This document shows, piece by piece, positions 40,017 through 53,363 of a stretch of 64,000 nucleotides of DNA. Each line of letters opens with the position of its first letter. Position 1 is the first letter of the stretch. Under the pieces are notes generated by a model, which did no database searches, was not told the DNA's origin, and was given only the letters and a program-made list of their open reading frames with translations. Source of the stretch: an uncultured Candidatus Entotheonella sp. (lineage in GTDB: Bacteria > Tectomicrobia > Entotheonellia > Entotheonellales > Entotheonellaceae); contig OX639990.1 of NCBI GenBank assembly GCA_951828535.1, forward strand, positions 2,467,300-2,531,299, read 5' to 3'. A program made the position numbers and the translations under genes.

Positions 40017-40160
40017 GTTTGTTCTCCAAGATGGCGTGATTTTGTGGGATGGGGTGTTTGTCAGTGAGGTGTCAGCATAGTGCGTTTTGAACGGTGCTGC
40101 AAACCGATGGGAGCCGGGAGCACCGGCGCTAGGTCGTGCAACACCCGGTCCTGACCGCGA

Positions 40161-43100
40161 TCACTTTGGCATCATCACCTGATAGCACACAACGCCCAGG
40201 TCGTCCTTGCCAATCGGCTCGGGCGCCTGCGGAGCCTGGACCGGACGCAGGCCGAACCTGGCAACGACTTCGAGGATTCGCCGGGCGCAGTCCGGCACGC
40301 TCATTCCGCCGCTTTCGTACTCCCGGCGCAGTTCCGACAGCTCACGACGCACGAGGTTGTTCCTGCCGACCGAGAGCGCCTGATCTCCCGCGTCATAGTC
40401 GTCACCAGCAGGCGCGTCCGGCGAGCGCAGGATGTCTAGCGCCCAACGCTGGCTGGCGGGAAGCGCAGCAAATCGCCTTTCGGGATCGAGCAGGGCGTTA
40501 TGTGCCTCACAGATGTCAGCGGCAGCCACAGTAAACAGGTACTCCAGATCAAGCCCTTCGGGGAAGGGACTTCCAGGCTGCCCCTGCGGGTCGATCAGCC
40601 GCAGCATCGGCAGATCTTCCCTGTACAGGATGTCTCCCGACCGGGAGACCATACGCCAGTAGCGTTCGTCCCGGCGGGTTCGACAGGCGAAGAATACCGA
40701 AAGCCCCGTCAGCGTCGGCGACCGCTGCACGAAAGCGGCGCCGATCCCCCAAGGCAACTCCTTCAGCCTGTTGACTTCGCCTTCCTCTGCAGCGCGCCTG
40801 AGTTGGGCGCGGAAGAGCTCGCCCGCAAACGCCGAGCCGCTCTCGCCGCTGTTCTCCTGCTCGTCCAGAAGCGTGGTGTCCCCACCGGAGAGCCGTTCCA
40901 CAAACGTGTTCAGGTCCGCGTACGCCCGGGATTCCATCTCCACGTCGGCTAGCACCGGGGTTTCCATGCCTACCGAAGCGTTCGCCGCCGTGATCTTGGC
41001 CTGGAGCTTGGCCTCCAGATCCAGCAATCGGTCCAGGTCGCCCTGTTCGGGAAGCAAGGTATAGAGGTACGCCGTGTCGTGCGGACTGCGCAGACGGATG
41101 ACGCGGCCATTGCGCTGCACTACGCGCTGTGGGTTCCAGGGCATGTCGAAGGAGAGCACCGCCTGGGCCTGTTGCAAATTCTGCCCCTCGGAGAGAATGT
41201 CGGTGCTTATCATCACGTCCACCTCACCGCCCTCAGGTCGAAAGCCTGACTCGTCCCTTACCGAATCTGGGCAGAATCGCTCGAGTTCCCGCGTGCGGGC
41301 GTCGGCGCTGGTCTCCGAGCCGATGACGGCCGTCCACGAGCGGCCGCCCAGCAGGTCCTGTCGGCTCTCGATACACGCCTTCAGATACGCAGCCGTGTCC
41401 TGAAACGCCGTAAAGACGGCGACCTTCTTCGACGGCGTTGCGGCCATCACCTCGCGCAGCATATCCAGCTTGGGGTCGTGACTGTCCTTCAGGCTCTCCA
41501 GTTGTGCCGACATGGCTGCCAGGATGTCCCGGTCTTTCTGCAAGTCGGGCAGGAACTCGTCGTTGAACTTGTCGGCGGACAGCCCACCCTCGGCGCCTGC
41601 CAGCGCCTCGTCGATCAGGTCGGCGCTCAGGAAGGCGTCGTCCTCCCCGGCATCGCCAACCAGGTCCTTGATGACTTCCGGCGGCGGAACCACGCCCCGC
41701 TCCGCCATCACGCGGAGCATCACGTCGTTCCCGTCCCGCATCCGGTTCACGGTTTGCAGCGCCGCGTACCAGGACGACTCGAAGCGCTTCAGCAACTGAG
41801 ACTGCATCAGGCCGGCCAGCGCTTCTTCCGATGCCGACTCGCCTTCCTTGTCCAGCCTGTAGGCCGACAAGCGATAGCGCGCCATCGTCAGCCCGTCGAT
41901 GCCGTCGTAGACGGCTTGCACGATGCCGGGGTGGGCGCTGTCCAGGTCGTAGCGGCGCTCGTGCAATTCCGGCTGCGGGAACTTCACCGGGGTGCCGTCC
42001 AAGAAGCGCTCGTTCCGATACCGTTCCTTGATGAAGGCCCTGTCCCGCCGTACCGTCAGGGCGTCGATCAACGGAAAGAGCCTGGCTTCCGACAGGTTCT
42101 CGGACCTGGAGGCTCCGGCTTCGGCAAAGAACTTGCGCAGGCTGGGAATCCGCAGCGGCTCCCCGGTAAAAGCGCTGTCGTGGCGGCTGAAAAGCAGGAA
42201 GAGATGGTGCAGGTCCCACAGTGAATTGTTGACCGGTGTGGCGGTGAGAAGCAGCAGTTTCTTCGGCGTGCCCCCCATGAGCCGGTCCAGCGCCGCGTAC
42301 CACGTGTTGTCCACATTGCGGTAGGCGTGCGCCTCGTCGATGACGATGAACCGGTACACGTCCTTGTTCACCGGCAGAACGCGGCGGCCGCTGCCGGGCG
42401 ACAATTGACGGTCCTGGGCCAACTGCTGGTAGGAGACCACGGTTCCCGGCAGGTTCGCCTCGCTGAGGCGCTGCTCCCAGAGGCGGTCCCGTAGCTGGGC
42501 CGGGGAGATGACCAGCACGTGCTGACCGAGGTCGCGCGTGTGCTCGCGGATGAACTGGACGCCGACCTCGGTCTTGCCCATGCCCACGCCGTCAGCGTAG
42601 AGCACCCCGCCGTAGCGGTCGAGAATGCGCTTCGCCCGCGCAAAACCGTCGCGTTGGAACGCGGTAAGGGCGTGCAACTCCGGCAGCGGCGCCTCGTCGT
42701 CCAGGTCGCCCCCGTAGAGTTCCAGCAAGGCGCGCAGGAAGACGGTCTGGGGGTCGCTCTCCAGAAATGGCAGTCGCAAGAGGTCCAGCAACGCTTCACG
42801 GAAGTCCTGGGCGTCGTCCCAGAGGCGCTCGTACCAATCCAGTGCCATGCCGACGACGTTGGGCTGGTAGTGCACCATGCCCAGTTCGAGATTGGCGACG
42901 AGGCCGCCTTGCGTGAGGTTGGCTGACGACACCAGCGCCGCCCCCGGTCCCATTGCAGACCCGGCGTCGTTCAGTTCGCCGATGACGTAGGCTTTGCCGT
43001 GCAGGAACCGTCTGACGTAGCGCCGCACCGCAACGTTTTCGGACTCGAAAAAGCGGCTGACACGCTCAAGCACGGCTCGCCGGGCGGCTGGAAACGCCGA

Positions 43101-43403
43101 GAAGTCCCGTTCGCGGCGCAGCGCCGACACCGATTGATCGAAGCGGTCGGCAACGGTTTCTCCTGTCGGACCAGCCAGTGCCTCCGGGGTGGCACCGATC
43201 AGAAGCCGGGAGGGCTGTCCCCGTTGCGCGGCTATCCTGGCAAGCGTGTCCAGCCCCTCCAGGCCGACGTAGCCGGTAGCCACGCTGAGCGGCCCTGCGT
43301 AGTGTTCGGCCAGCCATGCCAGCGCCTGCCGGTGGCTGCCGTAGTCAACGTTGTCCACCATCTCGTAGGGGCCATCGTTCACACGACGCTCCATATTCTT
43401 CAC
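40161..43403 (-). CDS. PLD-SNF2 helicase protein of a defence-like locus
   Basis: This 1080-residue protein starts with a PLD-like domain (about residues 15-190): FLHGKAYVIGE gives the H-x-K pair, and SSANLTQGGLVANLELG the second half. A SNF2-type helicase follows: Walker A YADGVGMGKTEVG near 268, DEAH in FIVIDEAHAYRN near 350, and the C-terminal STDILSEGQNLQQ and QRVVQRNGRVIRLRSPHDT near 730-770. In the PLD motif the usual D after H-x-K-x4 is G, so nuclease activity is doubtful. DrmD of DISARM is a SNF2 helicase paired with a methylase, but no DrmA, B or C is here. GTG 43403 lies one base after the PIN stop; ATG 43394 is an alternative. Confidence 0.88.
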   Translation of the reverse strand: MKNMERRVNDGPYEMVDNVDYGSHRQALAWLAEHYAGPLSVATGYVGLEGLDTLARIAAQRGQPSRLLIGATPEALAGPTGETVADRFDQSVSALRRERDFSAFPAARRAVLERVSRFFESENVAVRRYVRRFLHGKAYVIGELNDAGSAMGPGAALVSSANLTQGGLVANLELGMVHYQPNVVGMALDWYERLWDDAQDFREALLDLLRLPFLESDPQTVFLRALLELYGGDLDDEAPLPELHALTAFQRDGFARAKRILDRYGGVLYADGVGMGKTEVGVQFIREHTRDLGQHVLVISPAQLRDRLWEQRLSEANLPGTVVSYQQLAQDRQLSPGSGRRVLPVNKDVYRFIVIDEAHAYRNVDNTWYAALDRLMGGTPKKLLLLTATPVNNSLWDLHHLFLLFSRHDSAFTGEPLRIPSLRKFFAEAGASRSENLSEARLFPLIDALTVRRDRAFIKERYRNERFLDGTPVKFPQPELHERRYDLDSAHPGIVQAVYDGIDGLTMARYRLSAYRLDKEGESASEEALAGLMQSQLLKRFESSWYAALQTVNRMRDGNDVMLRVMAERGVVPPPEVIKDLVGDAGEDDAFLSADLIDEALAGAEGGLSADKFNDEFLPDLQKDRDILAAMSAQLESLKDSHDPKLDMLREVMAATPSKKVAVFTAFQDTAAYLKACIESRQDLLGGRSWTAVIGSETSADARTRELERFCPDSVRDESGFRPEGGEVDVMISTDILSEGQNLQQAQAVLSFDMPWNPQRVVQRNGRVIRLRSPHDTAYLYTLLPEQGDLDRLLDLEAKLQAKITAANASVGMETPVLADVEMESRAYADLNTFVERLSGGDTTLLDEQENSGESGSAFAGELFRAQLRRAAEEGEVNRLKELPWGIGAAFVQRSPTLTGLSVFFACRTRRDERYWRMVSRSGDILYREDLPMLRLIDPQGQPGSPFPEGLDLEYLFTVAAADICEAHNALLDPERRFAALPASQRWALDILRSPDAPAGDDYDAGDQALSVGRNNLVRRELSELRREYESGGMSVPDCARRILEVVARFGLRPVQAPQAPEPIGKDDLGVVCYQVMMPK

Positions 43404-43404
43404 G

Positions 43405-43776
43405 TCAGGGTGTTTCGGCGTATGGAACAGACAGTTCTTGGGCTATTCGGTTGAGCCGCTCGTCTCGCGTCCATAGGAGGGCACCTTCTTGATGCAGTAC
43501 GGAATACAGCATATGCGCGTCCATAAGACCTATGCCGCGCCCCATCAGTCTTGCGGATTCGATAAGGTCCCGGACTTCCTGATGCGTTCCTTCTCGAATC
43601 ACAGGCATTGCATCCATATTCCGCAAGAACGTTGTTCTGTCTGGAAGATTGCCGCAAGCCAACTCTCCGATGACCACCGGATGGGTAAGCACGTTGTTGG
43701 CTTCCAACTGTGCCAGTAGCGCCTGTTCCGGGCGGCGCAAGTGATCGATCCACACGGATGTATCCACCAGAATCAT
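43405..43776 (-). CDS. PIN-domain nuclease (VapC-like) coupled to the DNA methylase
   Basis: This 123-residue protein is a PIN nuclease of the VapC class, which cut RNA using two metals. The acidic positions are all seen: MILVDTSVWIDHL, VIGELACG, GLMDAHMLYS and LLWTRDERL. Its ATG overlaps the methylase stop (ATGA), and its own stop is one base before the helicase start. VapC genes normally follow a small vapB antitoxin gene; here the upstream partner is instead the 1359-residue methylase. It is either an insertion that kept the operon intact or an added effector. Only its toxin-like nature is firm. Confidence 0.9.
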   Translation of the reverse strand: MILVDTSVWIDHLRRPEQALLAQLEANNVLTHPVVIGELACGNLPDRTTFLRNMDAMPVIREGTHQEVRDLIESARLMGRGIGLMDAHMLYSVLHQEGALLWTRDERLNRIAQELSVPYAETP

Positions 43777-46700
43777 CGGGCAAGCTCGCTCCGGCGGCGC
43801 GGGATGTACGCCATGTCCGGCGCGCTGCCCCCCGCATCAGCAAGCCACTTTGCCGCCTCCGCCACCGCGAATTTCTCCAGCACCAGTTCCCGGTAGGCGG
43901 GACTCACGGCGTTCTCCGTGAAGTCGGTGAAGATGAAACGCAGTTCGTCTTCCGTCAGGCCGTAGGCGTGGGCTACCAGCGCGTCGATCTCCGCCCGCAT
44001 GTCGTGGCGCTGGGCGTCGGTCAGCGGTCCGCACACCACCCCGGCCTCCACGGCGAAGTCAGCAAAGCGTTCGTCTACACAAGACAGCCGTGCAGCCAGA
44101 GCACCGATACGTTCCCAAGCGATGTTGTCGGGAGTTGGGAAAGTGAGGCTGTTCAGGACATAGAAATTCAGGTGAAGCTCCACGTACCTGCGTGTAAGCC
44201 AGTCGAATGCAAGACTGTTCATTATTCCAAGCACAGTTGCTTGATGGACAACATCCCATTCAGAAAAGACGAGATAAGGTGCACTGTTTGTCAGTGGCGT
44301 CCGCGGCGGAACTAGGCAGGCTCTTACCGTGCGAGAGTCCGTACTTCGTGTGACGTCACGGAACGCAATACGGCAGTGGTTCATGGGGTGGGGGCCGGGG
44401 TCAGCAAGGAAGTCCGCAGAAAACATTCGCTTGAAGACGGTAGAGTGCCGCCGTTTCTGCTGCGCAAATGAAAAAACCTCTTTCCATACAGCGTATCCGG
44501 CAGGTTCATTGCCGTGCGGTTCGTACTGGTCGAAGGAGCGGCCTTTCCAGACGGGAACGCCTTGCGAGTGAGAGAAAAATGCCCGCTGCTGCGTCTCGTC
44601 CAGTTCCCTATACGGAATTGCATGAAACGCAGCAGCGGGCATTTCTGCAGTTGGTCGGCGTTGGGGATTCTGTAGGGAATCGAACTGAACGCCGCGGCGT
44701 AGTTTGGCGAGAACATCCGCATGCATCTGACTTGGCAGCAGCGGCACCACGCGGGCGCTTCCCAGCGACGAAGCCAAGATACTCACGCCCTTAGACCTTG
44801 CTGCACTCTGGAACTCGCTGAGGTTTACCGATGGTCCCGTTACCTGCAAGGTAGCTTGTTCGGTTGGTGTTCTGCGCTGGCCGGTCAGTAGAGCAATCGT
44901 GTATTGAGGATGAATCGCGAAGGCCCAGCCCCTATTGTTGAGAAGAAGATCAAGGCGCCTCAAACTGTTGTGGGCGAATAGCCATTGTCTGAACCCTTTG
45001 GCTCCCTGTACGAGGAAGGCCGTTCTGGGCAGCACGACGCCCAGACGCCCGTCTTGTCTGACCAGGTGGCTGTAACGTTCGCAGAAGAGTTGGTACAGGT
45101 CCTTGTCGCCCACGCCCTGAAGCTGGTAGCCCCCTCTGTCGGAGAAAAACCCTCGGACGGTCGCCAACTGTTGCTGCTGGGACTCAAACTCCTCACGCCA
45201 GTCGGAATTCTGTTCGTCGAGCTCGGCGATGCGACTTCGCCTATCGGCCAAGCTCGGTAGTCCGCGCAACCCAGGCTCCCGCAGCGCGTAGAACGCAAGT
45301 TCTTCTATGGTTATCTCGTTCCACGGCGGGTTGCCCACTACCACGTCGAAGCCTGGTCGCTCCCGGTGAAAAACGCTGGGGAACTCCAACGACCAGTGAA
45401 AGAAGCGATACTGCCCGGCGATACGCGATGCCTCTGCTATCGCGCCCGCTATCTTGGCGGTCTTGCTTTCGTCCCCCGCGATAATCGCTTCGGCGTTAGT
45501 TTCCAGGGCATGGCGAGCGCCGTCCAGTCCCAGCGGTTCCGCTGCCCACAGGTCGAAGGTGGACCGCAGTCCTGCCGTGGCACCATGGAGGTCGGCGCTC
45601 AGGTCCTCCGAGCGTTTCACCTCGTCGGGGGTGCGGTCCGGGTTCTCGGCCAGCTGGCGCTGGAGACCGGCCGCGTGCGTCATCGCCTCGGTCACGGCCT
45701 GGCCGGTGAACATCGGACTGTCGCTGGCCCCGACGACGGACGGGTCGGCCACGCCGATAAGGGCGTCGCCACACTTGAGGTTGCTGCCCAGGTAGGAAAG
45801 GGCCAGACCGGGGACGAAAGACGCCAGCCACAGCGTGACGTTGGCCACCTCAACCGCCATGGGGGACAGGTCCACGCCGTAGATGCAGCGCTTGAGGATG
45901 AGTCGCCGCAGCAGGTCGCCGTCCTCCGGTTGATGGGCAGCCGGTCCATCGTGCAGGCTCAATTCGCTGAGTTGTCGGGCAATGCCGGGCAGGCCGCCGA
46001 CCTCGGCAAGGAACAGTTCGAAGCGGTCGGCCATCATGTCCAGGGCCGCGGTGAGAAAGTGGGCGCTGCCCATCGCCGGGTCTACCACCGAGAAATCGAA
46101 CAGCCACCGCGCCGCCCCTTGGGGATCCCGCGCCGCCAGCTTGCTGATCCCGTCTAGATGGTCTTCGAGGGCGGGTAGCAGGGAATGGTTGAGCAGGTGG
46201 TCTACAAACTCGTGTCGCGTGTAGAACACGCCGCCAGCCTTGCGCCCGCCCGCCTCCGCCTGGTAGTAGAGCTGCGCCCTGGTCACCTCCGGCTGCTCGC
46301 CGGCGCGGAGCGGCCGGAACACGTCTTGCTTGGGGTCGTAGGCAAGGTCTTCGGGAGCGCGGGTGAGTCGCAGGGTAAGCAGGGCTTCATAGATGGCACC
46401 GAGATGGCCGATCTGCAGACCGGCGTAGTCCAGGCCCGGGGCACCGGCTTTGTCCGTCTCGTAGGCGATGGCCGCAAGCGCGGGGGCGAGATGGGCGTCC
46501 GCGATCTCAGCCCGTTCCAGCAAGGCGCTGCCGGGGAAGCCATCGGCCGCGAAGAGGCTGCCATTGTAGGCCGGCACGCCGGCGGAGCGGTCTCCGGTGC
46601 GTACCATCCGCACCAGCGTCCGCAGCCGGTCCCACCGCTGGGTTGACTTTCGGCTAAGCTGGGACACCGCCAACCGGGAGTCGTCGGCGAGCTGGCGCGC

Positions 46701-47852
46701 ACTGTGCGGGCGGTAGGCAGCCGAACCGATAGGAAGATAGCCGCGCGCCTCGGTGTGCAGCAGGAACATGAATCGGAAGACGAGGGTCAGCGCCGCCGCC
46801 TCGATCTGCCGCAGCTGCTCGCGGTCGCTCAGGTCGGCGCCTTGTGATTCAAGATGCTCGCCCAGTCCGCGCGCGATGTCGGGCAGCGCATCCTTGATGA
46901 GCCGTTCTTCCAGGCCCTTCCGCAGTTCTTCCCCGAAGTCCTTCGCCTCGCCTACCCAATCGGTCAGCCAGCCGTTTTCCTTCAACGACTGTGGCGTGAG
47001 CAGACCGAGGTACAGACGGTCCTTGCGCTCCAACTCTCCGGTATCTATTTCGATGTGCTGTCCTGCTGCCGACCCTATCGGCGGCCGCCGCTGAAACAAT
47101 CGGTAGCGACCCGCTGCCGTCAGGATGCCCCAGGGCGCGCCCTGCTGCTCGCAATCCGCCAACACCACCCCTTCGGGCAGTTCTCCATTGTCCGTCAGAC
47201 GGCTGAACCGGGATGGGTCGCGGTGCGGATGTACCACGGCGACCGGCGTGTTATCGTACCGCAGCAAGTAGCCGCGCTGCGGCAGTTGCTCCGCCTGGTA
47301 GCCCATGCCCTGGAACAGGGAGCGCCATGCCACCTTGCCGGTATGCGGCATGCCTTCGATAGCGCCCGACAAGCGTTGTTGGTTCACGGGCCAACGCAGC
47401 CGTTCGCGCACGAAATGCGGGGTGAGGAGGTCCTTGACCCGCAGACCCGGAACCACGGCCTCTTCAAGGCGGCTGAACTCCCGCGCCAGAAAGGAGGCCG
47501 CCCCGCGGACCGCCAGGCCGCGGCTGGCTTCCAGCAGGTCGAGAACCCGGCCAAGGGGTAACTCGCGAACCGGCCTGGCCTCCTGGGGACCCGCGACACG
47601 AACTCTGGATTCATCGTCCGAAGGGGCCAGCAGGACAACAGCGTACGCTTGGCGGCCCTTCCGCGCCTCCCACAACCTTCGCACTTCCCCTTCGCTGGCG
47701 GCGTCATCGGACCATAGCAGGTGGTAGGCCGGAGTTTCCCACACCGTCGCGGAACAACCTGCCTGTGACGTCCAGGCGCGCCCAGGACCGAAGGTGGCTT
47801 GCAGGCGGGCGAGTGGATGATTGGCAGCGGATGATGTCATGAAACGATTCAC
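43773..47852 (-). CDS. Large adenine DNA methyltransferase (Eco57I/PglX-like)
   Basis: This 1359-residue protein is a DNA N6-adenine methylase of the large single-chain group. Motif I appears as VVDPAMGSAHFLTAALDMM near residue 588 and the catalytic motif IV as VVVGNPPWNEITIEE near 838. The 250-residue spacing is typical of Eco57I/DrmMI/PglX types. The N-terminal 550 residues are helical (as in those proteins); the last 350 probably read the DNA target. No PD-DExK nuclease motif is seen, so cutting would need the partner. Start is GTG 47852 or ATG 47840. Genes for PIN and PLD-helicase follow without gaps, implying one operon. Confidence 0.88.
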   Translation of the reverse strand: MNRFMTSSAANHPLARLQATFGPGRAWTSQAGCSATVWETPAYHLLWSDDAASEGEVRRLWEARKGRQAYAVVLLAPSDDESRVRVAGPQEARPVRELPLGRVLDLLEASRGLAVRGAASFLAREFSRLEEAVVPGLRVKDLLTPHFVRERLRWPVNQQRLSGAIEGMPHTGKVAWRSLFQGMGYQAEQLPQRGYLLRYDNTPVAVVHPHRDPSRFSRLTDNGELPEGVVLADCEQQGAPWGILTAAGRYRLFQRRPPIGSAAGQHIEIDTGELERKDRLYLGLLTPQSLKENGWLTDWVGEAKDFGEELRKGLEERLIKDALPDIARGLGEHLESQGADLSDREQLRQIEAAALTLVFRFMFLLHTEARGYLPIGSAAYRPHSARQLADDSRLAVSQLSRKSTQRWDRLRTLVRMVRTGDRSAGVPAYNGSLFAADGFPGSALLERAEIADAHLAPALAAIAYETDKAGAPGLDYAGLQIGHLGAIYEALLTLRLTRAPEDLAYDPKQDVFRPLRAGEQPEVTRAQLYYQAEAGGRKAGGVFYTRHEFVDHLLNHSLLPALEDHLDGISKLAARDPQGAARWLFDFSVVDPAMGSAHFLTAALDMMADRFELFLAEVGGLPGIARQLSELSLHDGPAAHQPEDGDLLRRLILKRCIYGVDLSPMAVEVANVTLWLASFVPGLALSYLGSNLKCGDALIGVADPSVVGASDSPMFTGQAVTEAMTHAAGLQRQLAENPDRTPDEVKRSEDLSADLHGATAGLRSTFDLWAAEPLGLDGARHALETNAEAIIAGDESKTAKIAGAIAEASRIAGQYRFFHWSLEFPSVFHRERPGFDVVVGNPPWNEITIEELAFYALREPGLRGLPSLADRRSRIAELDEQNSDWREEFESQQQQLATVRGFFSDRGGYQLQGVGDKDLYQLFCERYSHLVRQDGRLGVVLPRTAFLVQGAKGFRQWLFAHNSLRRLDLLLNNRGWAFAIHPQYTIALLTGQRRTPTEQATLQVTGPSVNLSEFQSAARSKGVSILASSLGSARVVPLLPSQMHADVLAKLRRGVQFDSLQNPQRRPTAEMPAAAFHAIPYRELDETQQRAFFSHSQGVPVWKGRSFDQYEPHGNEPAGYAVWKEVFSFAQQKRRHSTVFKRMFSADFLADPGPHPMNHCRIAFRDVTRSTDSRTVRACLVPPRTPLTNSAPYLVFSEWDVVHQATVLGIMNSLAFDWLTRRYVELHLNFYVLNSLTFPTPDNIAWERIGALAARLSCVDERFADFAVEAGVVCGPLTDAQRHDMRAEIDALVAHAYGLTEDELRFIFTDFTENAVSPAYRELVLEKFAVAEAAKWLADAGGSAPDMAYIPRRRSELAR

Positions 47853-47905
47853 AATTTACAGGTTTGCAGAGGCGGGCCAGGTGATCTGGACCGAACTGTC
47901 AGGCG

Positions 47906-48013
47906 TCAGAACAATCCACGGAGCGCCTCCTGGGGATCAACCGCGTGGATGGGAGAGCGCTCGTAGTCCCTGACGTTCCTCTTTAGGTATACTGAACCTA
48001 ATGACAAAGTATG
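47906..48013 (-). pseudogene. C-terminal remnant of a PIN-domain toxin gene
   Basis: On the minus strand this stretch reads LGSVYLKRNVRDYERSPIHA then VDPQEALRGLF and a TGA at 47906-47908. It matches the last third of VapC-type PIN proteins (strand, RNVRDF-like aspartate, then helix). There is no start and no upstream part, so it is a fragment. It lies between the methylase and the SIR2 gene, inside their shared control region. Confidence 0.55.
47983..48001. promoter_or_regulatory. Inverted repeat and possible -10 box before the SIR2 gene
   Basis: TTAGGT at 47983-47988 and ACCTAA at 47996-48001 form a perfect inverted repeat over seven bases. It overlaps TATACT (47988-47993), close to the -10 consensus, 80 bases before the SIR2 gene. 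No good -35 is seen. A repressor site at a promoter is possible, not shown. Confidence 0.35.
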
Positions 48014-48072
48014 CGTATGTATGAAAGGCTATTCAAGACTCTCTGCACGGATTCTGGTGAAGGAGATGGGCG

Positions 48073-51000
48073 ATGGCCCTACGAAATTCAGAGAATGGCC
48101 CTGAATTTCCAGACGATTTTCTTGATTCACTCCTGGCCGGCAAGGTGGTTTTTCTCTGCGGTACTGGGGTAAGCGCACCGCAGATGCCTGATTTCCGGCG
48201 TCTCGTCGAGCGTACGTACGAGATTCTGGCCGTCGAGAGAACAGACTCGGAGGAGTTTGCGTTTGACCAAGGCCGCTTCGAGGAAGTCCTGGGATCACTC
48301 AGCAGGCGATTGTCCGACCCGCAAGCCGTGACGAGCACAGTTTCCGACCTTCTTGCGGTGCCCGATAATCCCATTCTCGATCAGCATCACACGATCCTTC
48401 GCTTGTCGCGTGATCTCGACAACCAAGTCTGCGTGGTGACCACGAATTTCGAGACGCTGTTCGAGCGAGCGATACAGACGACAAAACCAGGCGAAATACC
48501 ACGCAATAACAGCTTCGCCGGTCAGGCGCTGCCCGCTCCGGGCAGCGCGGCGTTTTCAGGGATTATTCATATCCATGGCCGCTTTGGAGATGCTGCGCTC
48601 GGACTCGAAGCCACCCCGCTGGTCCTCACGAGCGCCGATTATGGCGACGCCTACATGCGCTCCGGATGGGTATCGCGGTTTCTTTTCGATCTGGCGCGCT
48701 GCAAGTCCATCGCTTTGGTGGGGTACAGTGCGGGTGACGCGCCGGTTCGGTACTTCCTCAATGTCCTTGAAGCGGACCGCGCCCGTTTCCCGGATCTCAA
48801 AACGGTGTATGCGTTCGACGCCTACGAGAACAATCCCGAGGAAGCGGTCGGAGCCTGGGGCACGCTGGCAGTACGTCTGCTGCCTTACAGCAAGGTAAAC
48901 GCCAATACCGGCGCCCACGACCACTCCCCGCTCTGGGGCGATCTGGCGAAGCTGGCTGACATCGCCGATCGCCCAAAGCAATCACGACAAGAGCGGGCGC
49001 GCGCAATCTTGGAGCAACCAGCGGCAAAGGCAGGCGTTACAGCCCGAAAGGAACTGGGCTGGCTCTTTGGCCGCCGCGACCTCTGGCGAGTCGCGCTTGC
49101 TACAATTTCCGACCCCTCATGGTTTGAGGTCTTTCGGGACGACAGCCTGTGGTCGGCCGAGGATGCTGCCTGGGTAATCGCTGATTGGGTCGCCCAGAAC
49201 TTCCAAGATCGAGACCGCCTTGAGTGTGCTTGCGAATGGCAACGCCGCCTCGGCCGGCCGTTTACGGACAAGGTTGAGCGGCGATTGACCCAGCGGGCAG
49301 GAGATTTGGAGGAAGCCTGGCACCGCGTGTGGCGTCTCTTCTGCCTCGCCGAACCTGTCGAACGCCATGACCTAGCTTACCGTGCGGCGCAGAAACAGCT
49401 TATGAGTGGCGTTGTCCTGGATAGCGATCTGCGAAAAGCCGTAAGCCTGCTCGCACCCAGACTGGAACTGAGGTCGAGGCGTCGCGAGTTTCTGGATTAC
49501 AACGGCAGTCAGCCGGTCGTGCGGCTTTCTGACCTCCTCTGGCTGCGTATGGTCGTCTCTGATCAGTGCGGTGTCGAGGAGTTGATCACGGCTCTACTCG
49601 GGATGCCGAACCACGCCGGCCGAATTCTCGACCTCGCAACGGCTGAACTGCAATCTGCTCTCGAACTGGAAGTCGAACTCCATCGGATCAGCGAGGACCA
49701 CGACGAAAATGATTTCACAGTGCGGTCAATTGAAAGACACCGTCAGAACCACCTCCGACAAGGGGTGAATTTTCTGGTACGCGTGCTGGCAGAATCCTTG
49801 TCCCAGGCCGCCAGCTTGGACCGGGATCATACCAGAAGGGTCGTAACCAGCTGGAAAAATTTGCCCGGACGGATTGGGCTGCGCCTTTGCCTCCATGCCA
49901 TGCGAGACTTCGAGCTCTTCGATGCAGATGAGGCGATGAACACGCTTTTGTCAGTTCCCGGCAACGATTTCTGGGCGATCCGCCGGGAGATTGCGCTCCT
50001 GCTGAAGGATCGGGCGGGAACAGCGTCCCGGACGCTTGTAAGTCGTGTCGAAAAGAGGATACACGAAAGTGGAGATGCCTATTACGCCCGGTTCCCGGTC
50101 CAACCCGGAGAGGCAGAGTGGCGCGCGCATGCACGCGACACCGCCGTGTGGCTGCGCCTCAATATGCTGCGGGAGGCTGGTGCCCTTTCCAAAGCCGGCT
50201 TCGCAGAGCTTTCGGCTATCGAGGACCGGCGCGATTACCTCAACCGCGCGGTGGAAGACCGCGATTTCTTTGGGGCCTACGTCTCCGAGGTCCGCCGTAT
50301 TGATCCTGACCCCGCGCCGATTGTGGAAGCCGATGAAGACGACCGCTTACAAGTCGCACGGGAACTTGTCCGCAGGCCTGAAATCGATTTGCGGGAAGGC
50401 TGGTCGGCGTTCTGCCGATCCGACCCGCAGGCAGCCTTCGATTCACTCCGAGGGGGCTCCCTCACGCCTGAGAACGGAGCCCTATGGAACACGTTTCTTG
50501 GTGAGTTGGCGTTTAACGACGAGGCGAGCAAAGCAATTCGAGACGATCTGGCAATCAAGGCGCTCAAACACTTGGCTGGGTTCAGTCCAGATGTCCTACA
50601 ACCCATGGTTTCCGGCTTGGTCGACTTGATCTATTCAAGACCGCTGAAGCGTATTGGTGCTATACAACGCTGGCTCGAGCTCCTTTGGAGGATGGTTTCT
50701 GGACAGCAGGTAGGACCACTCGATCTCTCAACCGACTTATACGAGAAGGCGATCAATTCCTCCGAAGGAAAGCTCTCCCATGTGTTGTTACTGGAGATTG
50801 ATGCCCGGCGGAAAAGAGGCATCGGCCCTACGAAAGCGCAACACCGACTCCTCGGAAGAATATCCAGATATGAGGGCGCGGCAGGGCAACTCGGACGCGC
50901 CATGTTGGTTCATAACATGGCGTTCTTGCTTACCGTAGATGGCCAATGCGTGATCAAATTGCTAAAGCCGCGCATCAGCGCCGAGAATGCCGAGGGAGCG

Positions 51001-51660
51001 GCTTTACGTGACGTGATGCTGAGGTATGGCTCGATCGCGCCGGAGCTCACGCAGGTGTTCAGCCAAGAAATCACGAAAGGCATGATGGAAAATAAGTCGG
51101 TCGATTATGACGGCAGGGTCATCGCTTCGAATATTCTCCGCCCGGCATTGGACGAAGTCAGCGGAAACAGTGCCCTGAAATGGGGTTTGACGGCATCAGA
51201 CGCTGCGCAGATTCTGCGCAAGGCTTCGCAAGTCATCCGAACCGGCGCACTGGAAGTGCTGGCGGATTGGCTTGGAGATCATGAAGGAAGTGTCGAGGAG
51301 GATTGGCGGCTAAGAATCGCTCCCTTTTTTGAGAGGGTGTGGCCGAAGGAACGTGAATTCCGAGACTCATCACTCACGCCTTCCTTGATCGATTTGGCGG
51401 TCGGGGCTGGCGACGAATTCCCCAGAGCGTTGGAACTGCTGAAATCGTACCTTGTTCCATACGACCGGGGCTATGGAAGTCTGCAATCCATTGCTTTGTC
51501 GGAAGCGCCGGAGAAATTTCCCCGCGAGACGCTGGACTTGCTTTGGTTAGTTTGCGGCCGAAACAGCCGGGGAAGCTTTGACGAGATTTCAAAGATCATT
51601 GATCGGCTGATGGCAGCGGAGCCCGCCATCGAGATTGATCGTCGTTTGCAATCGCTTTAA
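48073..51660 (+). CDS. SIR2-domain protein, 1195 residues, likely anti-phage NADase
   Basis: The first 270 residues are a SIR2-like domain: VVFLCGTGVSAPQMPDF (G30-S34), TTNFETLFE (catalytic N125), IIHIHGRF (H168) and ALVGYSAGDAPVRYFLN near 215-230. Family relatives in DSR, Thoeris ThsA and prokaryotic Argonaute systems degrade NAD when they sense phage, starving the cell. The remaining 900 residues are helical and resemble no family I know; they may be the sensor. It is transcribed away from the methylase arm. ATG 48073 is preceded by GAAGGAGATGGGCG. An IS630 remnant begins just after the stop at 51658-51660, so the natural end may have been changed. Confidence 0.85.
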   Translation: MALRNSENGPEFPDDFLDSLLAGKVVFLCGTGVSAPQMPDFRRLVERTYEILAVERTDSEEFAFDQGRFEEVLGSLSRRLSDPQAVTSTVSDLLAVPDNPILDQHHTILRLSRDLDNQVCVVTTNFETLFERAIQTTKPGEIPRNNSFAGQALPAPGSAAFSGIIHIHGRFGDAALGLEATPLVLTSADYGDAYMRSGWVSRFLFDLARCKSIALVGYSAGDAPVRYFLNVLEADRARFPDLKTVYAFDAYENNPEEAVGAWGTLAVRLLPYSKVNANTGAHDHSPLWGDLAKLADIADRPKQSRQERARAILEQPAAKAGVTARKELGWLFGRRDLWRVALATISDPSWFEVFRDDSLWSAEDAAWVIADWVAQNFQDRDRLECACEWQRRLGRPFTDKVERRLTQRAGDLEEAWHRVWRLFCLAEPVERHDLAYRAAQKQLMSGVVLDSDLRKAVSLLAPRLELRSRRREFLDYNGSQPVVRLSDLLWLRMVVSDQCGVEELITALLGMPNHAGRILDLATAELQSALELEVELHRISEDHDENDFTVRSIERHRQNHLRQGVNFLVRVLAESLSQAASLDRDHTRRVVTSWKNLPGRIGLRLCLHAMRDFELFDADEAMNTLLSVPGNDFWAIRREIALLLKDRAGTASRTLVSRVEKRIHESGDAYYARFPVQPGEAEWRAHARDTAVWLRLNMLREAGALSKAGFAELSAIEDRRDYLNRAVEDRDFFGAYVSEVRRIDPDPAPIVEADEDDRLQVARELVRRPEIDLREGWSAFCRSDPQAAFDSLRGGSLTPENGALWNTFLGELAFNDEASKAIRDDLAIKALKHLAGFSPDVLQPMVSGLVDLIYSRPLKRIGAIQRWLELLWRMVSGQQVGPLDLSTDLYEKAINSSEGKLSHVLLLEIDARRKRGIGPTKAQHRLLGRISRYEGAAGQLGRAMLVHNMAFLLTVDGQCVIKLLKPRISAENAEGAALRDVMLRYGSIAPELTQVFSQEITKGMMENKSVDYDGRVIASNILRPALDEVSGNSALKWGLTASDAAQILRKASQVIRTGALEVLADWLGDHEGSVEEDWRLRIAPFFERVWPKEREFRDSSLTPSLIDLAVGAGDEFPRALELLKSYLVPYDRGYGSLQSIALSEAPEKFPRETLDLLWLVCGRNSRGSFDEISKIIDRLMAAEPAIEIDRRLQSL

Positions 51661-51667
51661 CATCGCG

Positions 51668-51886
51668 CGATGAGATTCGATTAGTACACTTGCCGCCCTA
51701 TTTGCCCGACCTGTCGCTGGTTGATCCCTATTGGTCAAAGCTCAAGACGGCTTTGCGTGGCGCGACGGCACGCACGCAAATGCACTCAACACCGCGTTGG
51801 TTGAGGCTTGGGAGGGTAGCGGCATCAGATGGTCGGGGCCATTGTGCCCATTGTGGCTATCCCAGATAGTCATGCGAAAATCGCTT
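51668..51886 (+). mobile_element. Remnant of an IS630-family transposase gene and end
   Basis: In one frame the DNA reads VHLPPYLPDLSLVDPYWSKL, then KTALRGATART, the C-terminal end of an IS630 transposase (the third acidic residue is the D of VDP). The frame then breaks: HANALNTALVEAWE lies in another frame, and ASDGRGHCAHCGYPR followed by TAG returns to the first. The terminal repeat TCATGCGAAAATCGCTT follows. The copy has lost its front part and is dead. The same right end is found at 63418-63448. Confidence 0.8.
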
Positions 51887-52078
51887 GCCCTATACTCCCG
51901 AAGGCCACCCACTGTCAGGAAGAGAAGCGTGGGGCTTTTCCTGAACGGCGAAGAATGTGTTAGGAGCATCCTCAACCAAACGTCCTGACCGGCATGATCT
52001 ACTCAAGCGCGAAAAGCAATTTCCCGCCTTTATAGCCATTTGCTTATTGGATTTTTGCCAACGGTCAACCGGCGCTCT

Positions 52079-52204
52079 TCAAACTTTCGACAGGAACGCC
52101 CCCGACCGATCGACAAATAGTCCATAGGTACTACCCACCTTCTTCCCCTTAGCGTTCAGCGTTGGGATCCTCAAGTTGGATTCATTGTCGTAAGCGACCG
52201 ATAT
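52079..52204 (-). pseudogene. Unidentified coding-like fragment before the larC stop
   Basis: On the minus strand one frame reads WISVAYDNESNLRIP, then TLNAKGKKVGSTYGLFVDRS and GAFLSKV to a TGA at 52079-52081. It has no start codon and runs into the end of larC on the other side. It looks like the C-terminus of a lost protein. The rest of the 51887-52208 stretch shows nothing I can identify. Confidence 0.3.
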
Positions 52205-52208
52205 CCAC

Positions 52209-53363
52209 CTAGGAGGTCAGCCAGGAGGCCGCCAGGCGGGCTGCCTCGGCATACACCACCCGCACCGGAACGCCGTGCTCACGCGCGGCCTGCTTGCAGG
52301 CGTCGTACTCCGGCGCCGCCTGCACGATCCGGTCGTCCAGGGTGCCGCACTTCACGGCGATGCGGCCGTAGCGGGTGTCGACGTGACGGTGAAACCGCTC
52401 CAGCTTGTGGCGCCACGCTTCGTGCACGCGCACGCCAAAGCTTGACGTGTGCTGCAAGATCAGGCGTGAGAGTTCGTTGACGTGCGGGAGGGGCGACAGG
52501 ACCGTCAGCTTGTTGGCGGGCCGGTTTTTCTTCATGAACAGCGGCGTCAGCGTGACGTCCAGGGCGCCGCGGGCAAAGAGGCACTCGAAGACGGCCTCGT
52601 AAAGCTCCGGGTTCATGTCGTCGATGTGGGTTTCAATGATGGCAATCCATTCGGCGTCCGCCTGACCTTCCCGGTCGCCAAGCGCCATTTGCAATTGTGG
52701 GGCGTCCGGGGCGTCGTTCTGCGTCCCGTAGCCGGTGGCGGCAAGAGTCATGGCAGGCAACGGCCCATAACGGCTGGCGATGGTGGTAAGGATGGCGGCA
52801 CCGGCGACGGTTGTTGCCTGTTCGGCTTGCTTCTGACCCTGAATGGATGCGCCCCGGCACAGTTCGGCGATCAGCGGGTGCAGGAGCGGCGTGTCTTCGG
52901 CTCGGACGCCAAGTGGCAGGGGCGCCGCAACGACCTCATCGACGCCCAGTTCTTCCAGCGCCAGGACCACGCCGCTGCCGAGATGGACGATTTCCGGCAG
53001 GTACTCGGCGCGAACGGCTGCATCGCCCCCGTACACGCGCTCAACGGCGGCGCCATAGCGATTCAGCATGGCCGACAGTTTGCGCTTGGGTCGGTCGGCA
53101 AGCCCGCAGTCGTCGATGTGGGCGAGTACGGTCGCCACGGGTTGGCGGTCGAGGAACTCGGCGGTTTGGTCAGGCGAGAAGTCGACCCGAGTGGCAGCGC
53201 CTTGCGGGAAGGTCACGCGTGCCGCGGATACCTGCGCAACCGGCAGGCCCAGCGACCGCCACCCCAACTCGATAGCGGCGAGCGAGGCGCCGGCGTCCAG
53301 GCACGCCCCCAGCAGCAACGGGGCGCTGAGGCCGCCATGACCGTGTATATGAGCGATACGCAT
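52209..53363 (-). CDS. larC: LarC-like nickel insertion protein
   Basis: This 384-residue protein is LarC, which puts nickel into the pyridinium cofactor of lactate racemase. The LarC signature is seen in the second half: IETHIDDMNPELYEAVFECL, ALDVTLTPLFMKKNRP and QHTSSFGVRVHEAWRHKL. The usual N-terminal block (D-x-x-SG-x-SGDM) is replaced here by IAHIHGHGGLSAPLLLGACL, so the first metal- or nucleotide-handling site is changed. ATG 53363 follows GAGGG. It reads out of larB. LarE, needed for the cofactor sulfur, and the racemase are not in the window. Confidence 0.87.
   Translation of the reverse strand: MRIAHIHGHGGLSAPLLLGACLDAGASLAAIELGWRSLGLPVAQVSAARVTFPQGAATRVDFSPDQTAEFLDRQPVATVLAHIDDCGLADRPKRKLSAMLNRYGAAVERVYGGDAAVRAEYLPEIVHLGSGVVLALEELGVDEVVAAPLPLGVRAEDTPLLHPLIAELCRGASIQGQKQAEQATTVAGAAILTTIASRYGPLPAMTLAATGYGTQNDAPDAPQLQMALGDREGQADAEWIAIIETHIDDMNPELYEAVFECLFARGALDVTLTPLFMKKNRPANKLTVLSPLPHVNELSRLILQHTSSFGVRVHEAWRHKLERFHRHVDTRYGRIAVKCGTLDDRIVQAAPEYDACKQAAREHGVPVRVVYAEAARLAASWLTS

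What the first reader, a model, noticed from the sequence alone, without database searches (positions are those of the whole stretch)
40161..51660. Unassigned defence locus: DNA methylase, PIN nuclease and PLD-SNF2 helicase, with a SIR2 NADase facing away
Seen: a 1359-residue adenine methylase, a PIN nuclease and a 1080-residue PLD-SNF2 helicase packed without gaps on one strand, and a 1195-residue SIR2-domain protein on the other, 220 bases away. Known: DISARM class 1 pairs a SNF2 helicase (DrmD) with an adenine methylase (DrmMI) but also needs DrmA, B and C, which are absent. SIR2 proteins kill infected cells by destroying NAD. Inference: this may be a two-layer system in which modification-guided attack is backed by a suicide effector and an RNA-cutting PIN.
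Basis: partly seen in the sequence, partly recalled or inferred. Interest (0 to 1): 0.8.

Follow-up and report, generated by a model that had tools for sequence, protein, structure and literature searches.

The report
DNA methylase fused to VapC antitoxin tail
A bacterial two-gene system that probably marks its own DNA and cuts foreign DNA has picked up an RNA-cutting toxin between its two genes, and the piece of protein that normally silences that toxin is now the last 31 residues of the DNA-marking enzyme, so the cell may poison itself if a virus disables that enzyme.

Summary
All four genes are present as described, but they are not one four-gene system. The core is a conserved two-gene cassette, an Eco57I-type adenine methylase (1359 aa) plus a PLD-SNF2 helicase (1080 aa), paired in many bacterial phyla and haloarchaea. 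The methylase's nuclease-like domain has lost its (D/E)xK residues family-wide; the helicase's PLD residues are invariant in 37 of 37 sequences, so the helicase probably cuts. The SIR2 gene is a Dsr1-family gene, standalone elsewhere; it shares only the 12.1-kb island, an empty site in a same-genus genome. The new observation is the PIN gene: a VapC toxin without a vapB gene. Its VapB is fused to the methylase. Orthologous methylases end '..EKFExL*'; this one continues with 31 residues matching the toxin-neutralising VapB tail (HMM E=1.4e-5; next of 11,039 ORFs 0.16), then overlaps VapC by ATGA as ordinary vapBC does. Best reading: the methylase is the antitoxin, a PrrC/EcoprrI-like guard built from VapBC parts. 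The fusion was seen once; an unrelated PIN toxin module (XRE-ImmA plus DUF4411) occupies the same gap in several distant relatives. Neutralisation and guarding are inferred, not shown.

The parts
43773..47852 (-). Eco57I-type adenine-N6 DNA methylase (motif I DPAMGS at residue 591, NPPW at 841) with an N-terminal PD-(D/E)XK-like domain (residues ~166-300) lacking the (D/E)xK residues, fused at its C-terminus to a VapB tail
43776..43868 (-). VapB antitoxin C-terminal tail, methylase residues 1329-1359 (AVAEAAKWLADAGGSAPDMAYIPRRRSELAR); replaces the last three codons of the family's own C-terminus
43405..43776 (-). VapC-type PIN RNase toxin, acidic residues D5, E38, D86, D105 present; start codon overlaps the methylase stop (ATGA)
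40161..43403 (-). PLD-SNF2 helicase-nuclease: PLD motif H135xK137, S160xN162, E173; Walker A 272-278; DEAH 356
48073..51660 (+). Dsr1-family SIR2 NADase (GTGVS 30, N125, H168); island neighbour, separate defence gene
40106..52214 (.). Extent of the inserted defence island; in same-genus genome G002 the flanking PIG-L and LarC genes are ~140 bp apart
51690..52140 (+). Decayed transposase remnants (IS630-like LPPYLPDLSLVDPYWSKLKTALR and a second fragment) at the right edge of the island
   Evidence: read by eye

Best explanation
A two-subunit ATP-dependent restriction-modification-like cassette (adenine methylase plus PLD-SNF2 helicase-nuclease) in which a 5'-truncated vapBC module landed at the end of the methylase gene. 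The methylase now carries the VapB tail and acts as the antitoxin of the downstream VapC. While the methylase is made and intact, its tail sits in the VapC active site, and the two proteins are made together through the ATGA overlap. If a phage degrades, displaces or outcompetes the methylase, or shuts off host expression, VapC is freed and stops translation by cutting RNA (a backup like PrrC behind EcoprrI). Shown by sequence: the cassette, the fusion, the intact VapC, the degenerate nuclease fold in the methylase and the invariant PLD site. Inferred: methylation, restriction, neutralisation by the fused tail, and release during infection.
For: Fusion: orthologous methylases in 14 relatives end within a few residues of the junction, without the tail. 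A VapB-tail HMM built from 21 VapBs hits the window methylase at 23.7 bits, E=1.4e-5 among 11,039 ORFs, next 0.16; best of 20,000 shuffled tails 15.2 bits. 23 of 24 VapC homologues examined have a VapB with this tail directly upstream, many with the same ATGA overlap. PF09957 finds no VapB near this VapC, and this is the only such VapC in the genome. VapC acidic residues intact. Literature: the VapB C-terminal tail covers the VapC active site (PMC10127717); only VapB5 residues 53-86 are modelled on VapC5 (PMC4803016). Cassette: the same six plasmids give the best-covered hits of both proteins, genes adjacent; 75 loci carry both genes in order, 56 within 150 bp. Guarding: PIN modules recur in the same gap (L039, L047, L050, L056; a decayed PIN in L095; L148). 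Precedent: PrrC silenced by its linked type Ic R-M enzyme and activated by the T4 Stp peptide (PMC2610378).
Against: One genome only: no second methylase-VapB fusion among ~97 loci or in the roughly 440 genomes scanned. No experiment shows that the tail alone, without VapB's N-terminal dimerisation domain, neutralises this VapC. PIN nuclease activity is unproven. The other PIN modules in the gap carry their own XRE-ImmA partner, so they do not support methylase-as-antitoxin directly. No complex with VapC could be modelled.
Confidence: 0.5

Rival explanations
1. The vapBC fragment is a recent, neutral insertion. The in-frame fusion with the tail persists because VapC needs some neutraliser, or because VapC is weak; it adds no infection-sensing function to the methylase-helicase cassette.
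For: Singleton; no VapC in any other locus; the junction also takes other unrelated cargo (Uma2, DUF5131, PaREP1, AbiE). VapC homologues occur in same-genus G002 and same-class G004, next to VapB, possible donors.
Against: Frames, start-stop overlap and all VapC acidic residues are intact, and no separate VapB gene is adjacent, so a functional tail must have been kept if VapC is active. Toxin or defence genes recur in this gap.
Confidence: 0.3
2. The tail is also translated from an internal start (GTG at the second residue of the tail, behind GGAG) as a free mini-antitoxin, so that vapB'C remains an autonomous addiction module that stabilises the island.
For: An in-frame GTG with a GGAG about 9 nt upstream lies at the junction (read by eye).
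Against: The GGAG belongs to the LEKF codons, which methylases without the tail also carry, so it is probably coincidental; no VapB DNA-binding domain remains.
Confidence: 0.1
3. The four genes form one two-layer system, with Dsr1 as the suicide effector.
For: All four lie in one 12.1-kb island that is absent from a same-genus genome, with a 220-bp divergent promoter region.
Against: Dsr1 absent from ~97 cassette loci; Dsr1 relatives stand alone.
Confidence: 0.05

Closest known systems
PrrC / EcoprrI (anticodon nuclease silenced by a type Ic R-M enzyme)
   Same: RNase toxin genetically linked to an R-M system and held silent by its proteins; release when restriction is inhibited (PMC2610378).
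   Different: Toxin here is a VapC PIN domain, not the PrrC ATPase-ACNase; silencing here would come from a VapB tail fused to the methylase; the R-M part is not type Ic.
VapBC type II toxin-antitoxin systems
   Same: VapC up to 50% identical to ordinary VapCs; VapB tail and ATGA overlap kept.
   Different: VapB's DNA-binding and dimerisation half is replaced by a 1328-residue DNA methylase.
Type IIG R-M enzymes (PADLOC REase_MTase_IIG, BpuSI)
   Same: Methylase matches PDLC03620 over residues 48-1315; N-terminal nuclease-like fold as in BpuSI (Z 8.3).
   Different: (D/E)xK lost family-wide; a separate PLD-SNF2 partner supplies the only conserved nuclease.
DISARM class 1 (DrmD + DrmMI)
   Same: SNF2 helicase with adenine methylase; weak profile similarity.
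   Different: No drmA/B/C nearby; DrmD score 101 against cut-off 610.
Hma / DUF499-centred BREX-related systems and ARMADA
   Same: N6-methylase plus SNF2 helicase-nuclease.
   Different: These need a DUF499 ATPase or a YprA helicase (PMC12839542; PMC12458937); neither was seen beside the cassette.

Membership tests
DISARM class 1 | drmA, drmB, drmC beside drmD/drmMI | tested here: not met
   PADLOC scan of ten flanking genes gave no Drm hit; the neighbours scanned with Pfam are metabolic
DISARM class 1 | helicase passes the DrmD equivalog cut-off | tested here: not met
   NF038317 101 bits vs 610; NF038318 87 vs 950
Type IIG R-M | methylase matches a IIG profile along its length | tested here: met
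   PDLC03620 E=2.7e-119, residues 48-1315
Type IIG R-M | active PD-(D/E)XK nuclease in the same polypeptide | tested here: not met
   fold present but the (D/E)xK positions are not conserved in 43 sequences and read HPH in the window
Hma / DUF499 BREX-related | DUF499 AAA+ ATPase in the operon | tested here: not met
   operon is methylase-PIN-helicase; flanking genes are metabolic or Dsr1
VapBC type II TA | PIN toxin with conserved acidic residues | tested here: met
   D5, E38, D86, D105
VapBC type II TA | adjacent VapB C-terminal neutralising tail (sequence) | tested here: met
   tail HMM E=1.4e-5 at the methylase C-terminus; neutralisation itself not tested
VapBC type II TA | VapB N-terminal DNA-binding domain (autoregulation) | tested here: not met
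   replaced by the methylase; no PF09957 hit near the locus
PrrC/EcoprrI | PrrC ATPase-ACNase protein and type Ic hsd genes | tested here: not met
   toxin is a PIN domain, R-M genes are Eco57I-type methylase and PLD-SNF2
PrrC/EcoprrI | R-M protein silences the toxin, anti-restriction releases it | not testable with these tools
   needs an experiment
Dsr1 (SIR2 gene) | full-length Dsr1 profile match and SIR2 active site | tested here: met
   PDLC04167 residues 6-1193; N125, H168
Dsr1 (SIR2 gene) | passes the NCBIfam Dsr1 equivalog cut-off | tested here: not met
   NF041818 333 bits vs 1400; a divergent member or relative

The most novel reading that the evidence does not exclude
An R-M-type DNA methylase has itself become the antitoxin of an RNase toxin, so loss of the modification enzyme directly arms a suicide nuclease; and the gap between modification and restriction genes of this widespread cassette is a general docking site for such toxins.
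Probability: 0.4. Interest if true: 0.8.

Novelty: new variant of a known kind. Interest (0 to 1): 0.6.

Why it matters
PrrC/EcoprrI is the well-known case of a toxin guarded by a restriction enzyme. This locus suggests that the same logic can arise again from common vapBC parts by a simple gene fusion, gives a direct molecular link (the VapB tail) that can be deleted or mutated, and points to a short search rule (antitoxin tails on large defence proteins upstream of overlapping toxin genes) that standard profile tools miss: Pfam, NCBIfam and PADLOC found no antitoxin here.

Tried and rejected
DISARM, BREX, Hma, ARMADA filing: missing partners. Nuclease in the methylase: fold yes, catalytic residues no. 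SIR2 as part of the unit: no co-occurrence. A second methylase-VapB fusion: none in ~97 loci, 386 genomes spread mostly over other Bacteria, and two further phyla. Close relatives on viral contigs: nothing for the helicase, two ordinary vapBC for the PIN. PDB relatives of the PIN and of the tail by sequence: none useful. In the structural comparison of the helicase the list was filled by SNF2 cores, so the PLD part was barely tested by fold; it rests on Pfam and the invariant motif. A single-chain model of tail plus VapC was not run: the two are in different frames and no suitable alignment could be supplied. Literature searches found no methylase-antitoxin fusion; only open-licence papers were searched.

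Full report
Observation. The methylase, PIN and helicase are packed on the minus strand with a 4-bp (ATGA) overlap and a 1-bp gap; the SIR2 gene diverges 220 bp away.

The island. In a same-genus genome (G002) the flanking genes PIG-L (91% identical protein) and LarC (79%) are about 140 bp apart; in the window they are separated by 12.1 kb, roughly 40106-52214. So all four genes lie in a region absent from that relative. Decayed transposase pieces lie at the right edge. The neighbours are ordinary metabolic genes.

The conserved unit is two genes. On plasmids, the six best-covered hits of the helicase and of the methylase are the same six records, with the genes adjacent in the order methylase-helicase (Euzebya, Halalkalicoccus, Halorubrum, Rhodococcus, Mycobacterium gallinarum, Paenarthrobacter). 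A genome scan gave 80 more methylase loci and a viral-contig scan 11. Of these and the plasmids, 75 carry the helicase downstream, 56 within 150 bp and 19 with a longer gap. The closest relatives of the window's methylase (72-80% identical) are Chloroflexota/SAR202 MAGs. No Dsr1 and no VapC homologue was detected in any of these loci. Three Dsr1 relatives on plasmids stand apart from any methylase-helicase pair. The SIR2 gene is therefore a co-resident of the island, not a part of the cassette.

Who cuts. PADLOC calls the methylase a type IIG enzyme (E=3e-119, residues 48-1315). An AlphaFold model of residues 1-600 (pLDDT 85.6) places a PD-(D/E)XK-like domain at about 166-300 (BpuSI nuclease domain Z 8.3; HsdR fragment Z 8.2). 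The strand that should carry (D/E)xK reads AVVHPH in the window and is A-V-x-(L/H) across 43 relatives with no conserved acidic-lysine pair. The fold is kept and the active site is gone. The partner helicase instead has a PLD motif with H, K, S, N and E invariant in 37 of 37 and an intact Walker A, and its core superposes on SNF2 motors (Z about 19). So the most likely division of labour is methylase for recognition and self-marking, helicase for translocation and PLD cleavage. This is inference from anatomy.

The PIN gene is VapC, and its antitoxin is the methylase's tail. The PIN protein is up to 50% identical to ordinary VapC toxins, and 23 of 24 such homologues examined have a VapB directly upstream, often overlapping by ATGA. 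Here the gene upstream is the methylase. Orthologous methylases end within a few residues of the junction, for example 'YRQLVLEKFEAL*' and 'YREKVLEWFERL*' (14 relatives). The window protein reads 'YRELVLEKF' and continues 'AVAEAAKWLADAGGSAPDMAYIPRRRSELAR*'. VapB tails read, for example, 'EAARRLAALGGSQPGITGAPRRRQEVE' and 'QAGQRLAALGGRAPDMPDVPRRNPEAAAR'. A 27-position HMM of 21 VapB tails hits the window methylase with E=1.4e-5 and 23.7 bits among 11,039 ORFs; the next hit has E=0.16; the best of 20,000 shuffled tails scores 15.2 bits. VapC's acidic residues are intact, this is the only such VapC in the genome, and no VapB domain was found near it (two VapB-like matches over the cut-off lie elsewhere in the genome). 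A 5'-truncated vapBC thus replaced the last three codons of the methylase, in frame.

How it may work. VapB tails neutralise VapC by covering its active site (PMC10127717), and the VapC5 complex shows only VapB5 residues 53-86 (PMC4803016), so a grafted tail could suffice. The simplest functional reading is that the methylase holds VapC silent and releases it when the methylase is lost or blocked. That is the logic of PrrC, silenced by its linked R-M enzyme and activated when T4 Stp inhibits that enzyme (PMC2610378). None of this is shown experimentally for the present locus.

The gap as a cargo site. In 19 of 75 loci something may sit between methylase and helicase: XRE-ImmA/IrrE with a DUF4411 PIN in L039, L047, L050 and L056 (Pfam-confirmed PIN in L039 and L056, read from the translation in L047 and L050), with a decayed PIN in L095; the same pair follows the methylase in genome G102 (L148, by eye). 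Also AbiEi/AbiEii (L105), Uma2 (L025 by Pfam, L023 by eye), DUF5131 (L020, and L023 by eye), PaREP1 (L024), Schlafen AlbA_2 (L057; L038 by eye), a SIR2-domain protein (L047), a trypsin-like protease (L099), AAA_14/DUF4143 (L037) and, on the opposite strand, HigB (L030); a few gaps hold nothing recognised (L028, L035, L073). On the methylase tree four of the five ImmA-PIN loci fall together (with L075, which has other cargo) and L047 apart, so at least two gains or several losses. ImmA-XRE proteins are known partners of PIN toxins (PMC2701414). PIN toxins of two different Pfam families thus reached the same place.

Limits. The fusion is a single case. The census is of the best-scoring loci, not a random sample. 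The neutralising and sensing roles are inferred. Confidence that the tail is of VapB origin is about 0.95; that it neutralises VapC about 0.6; that this serves as a guard in defence about 0.4-0.5.

Noticed in passing
L039, L047, L050, L056, L095, L148 (between methylase and helicase, or after the methylase): XRE-ImmA/IrrE plus DUF4411 PIN module inside the methylase-helicase cassette, in L056 with an ATGA overlap to the methylase; PIN decayed in L095.
   Followed up: partly
L047:11864-17766: A 5.9-kb insert between methylase and helicase holding a SIR2-domain protein, a large following ORF that looks HerA-like by eye, XRE-ImmA, a DUF4411-like PIN and a DUF4062/Fic-like protein.
   Followed up: partly
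L105:11864-14660: AbiEi/AbiEii toxin-antitoxin pair between a distant methylase (27%) and its helicase on a viral contig.
   Followed up: partly
L020, L023, L025 (close Chloroflexota relatives): DUF5131 and Uma2 nuclease genes occupy the same gap in the window's nearest relatives.
   Followed up: partly
window 51690-52140: Decayed IS630-like and other transposase fragments at the right edge of the island.
   Followed up: partly
G002:C1:101489-101821 (L132): Same-genus genome has a vapBC whose VapC reading frame contains a TGA stop.
   Followed up: no
G000:C1:2656998-2659400 (L002, L003), 2003401-2004021, 2977461-2979353: Three further helicase ORFs of 1100-1200 aa resembling this one (29-35%) in the same genome; possible other defence loci.
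   Followed up: no
family-wide, methylase residues 166-300: A whole family labelled type IIG restriction enzyme in PADLOC appears to lack its nuclease residues, so such calls may over-report active IIG enzymes.
   Followed up: partly
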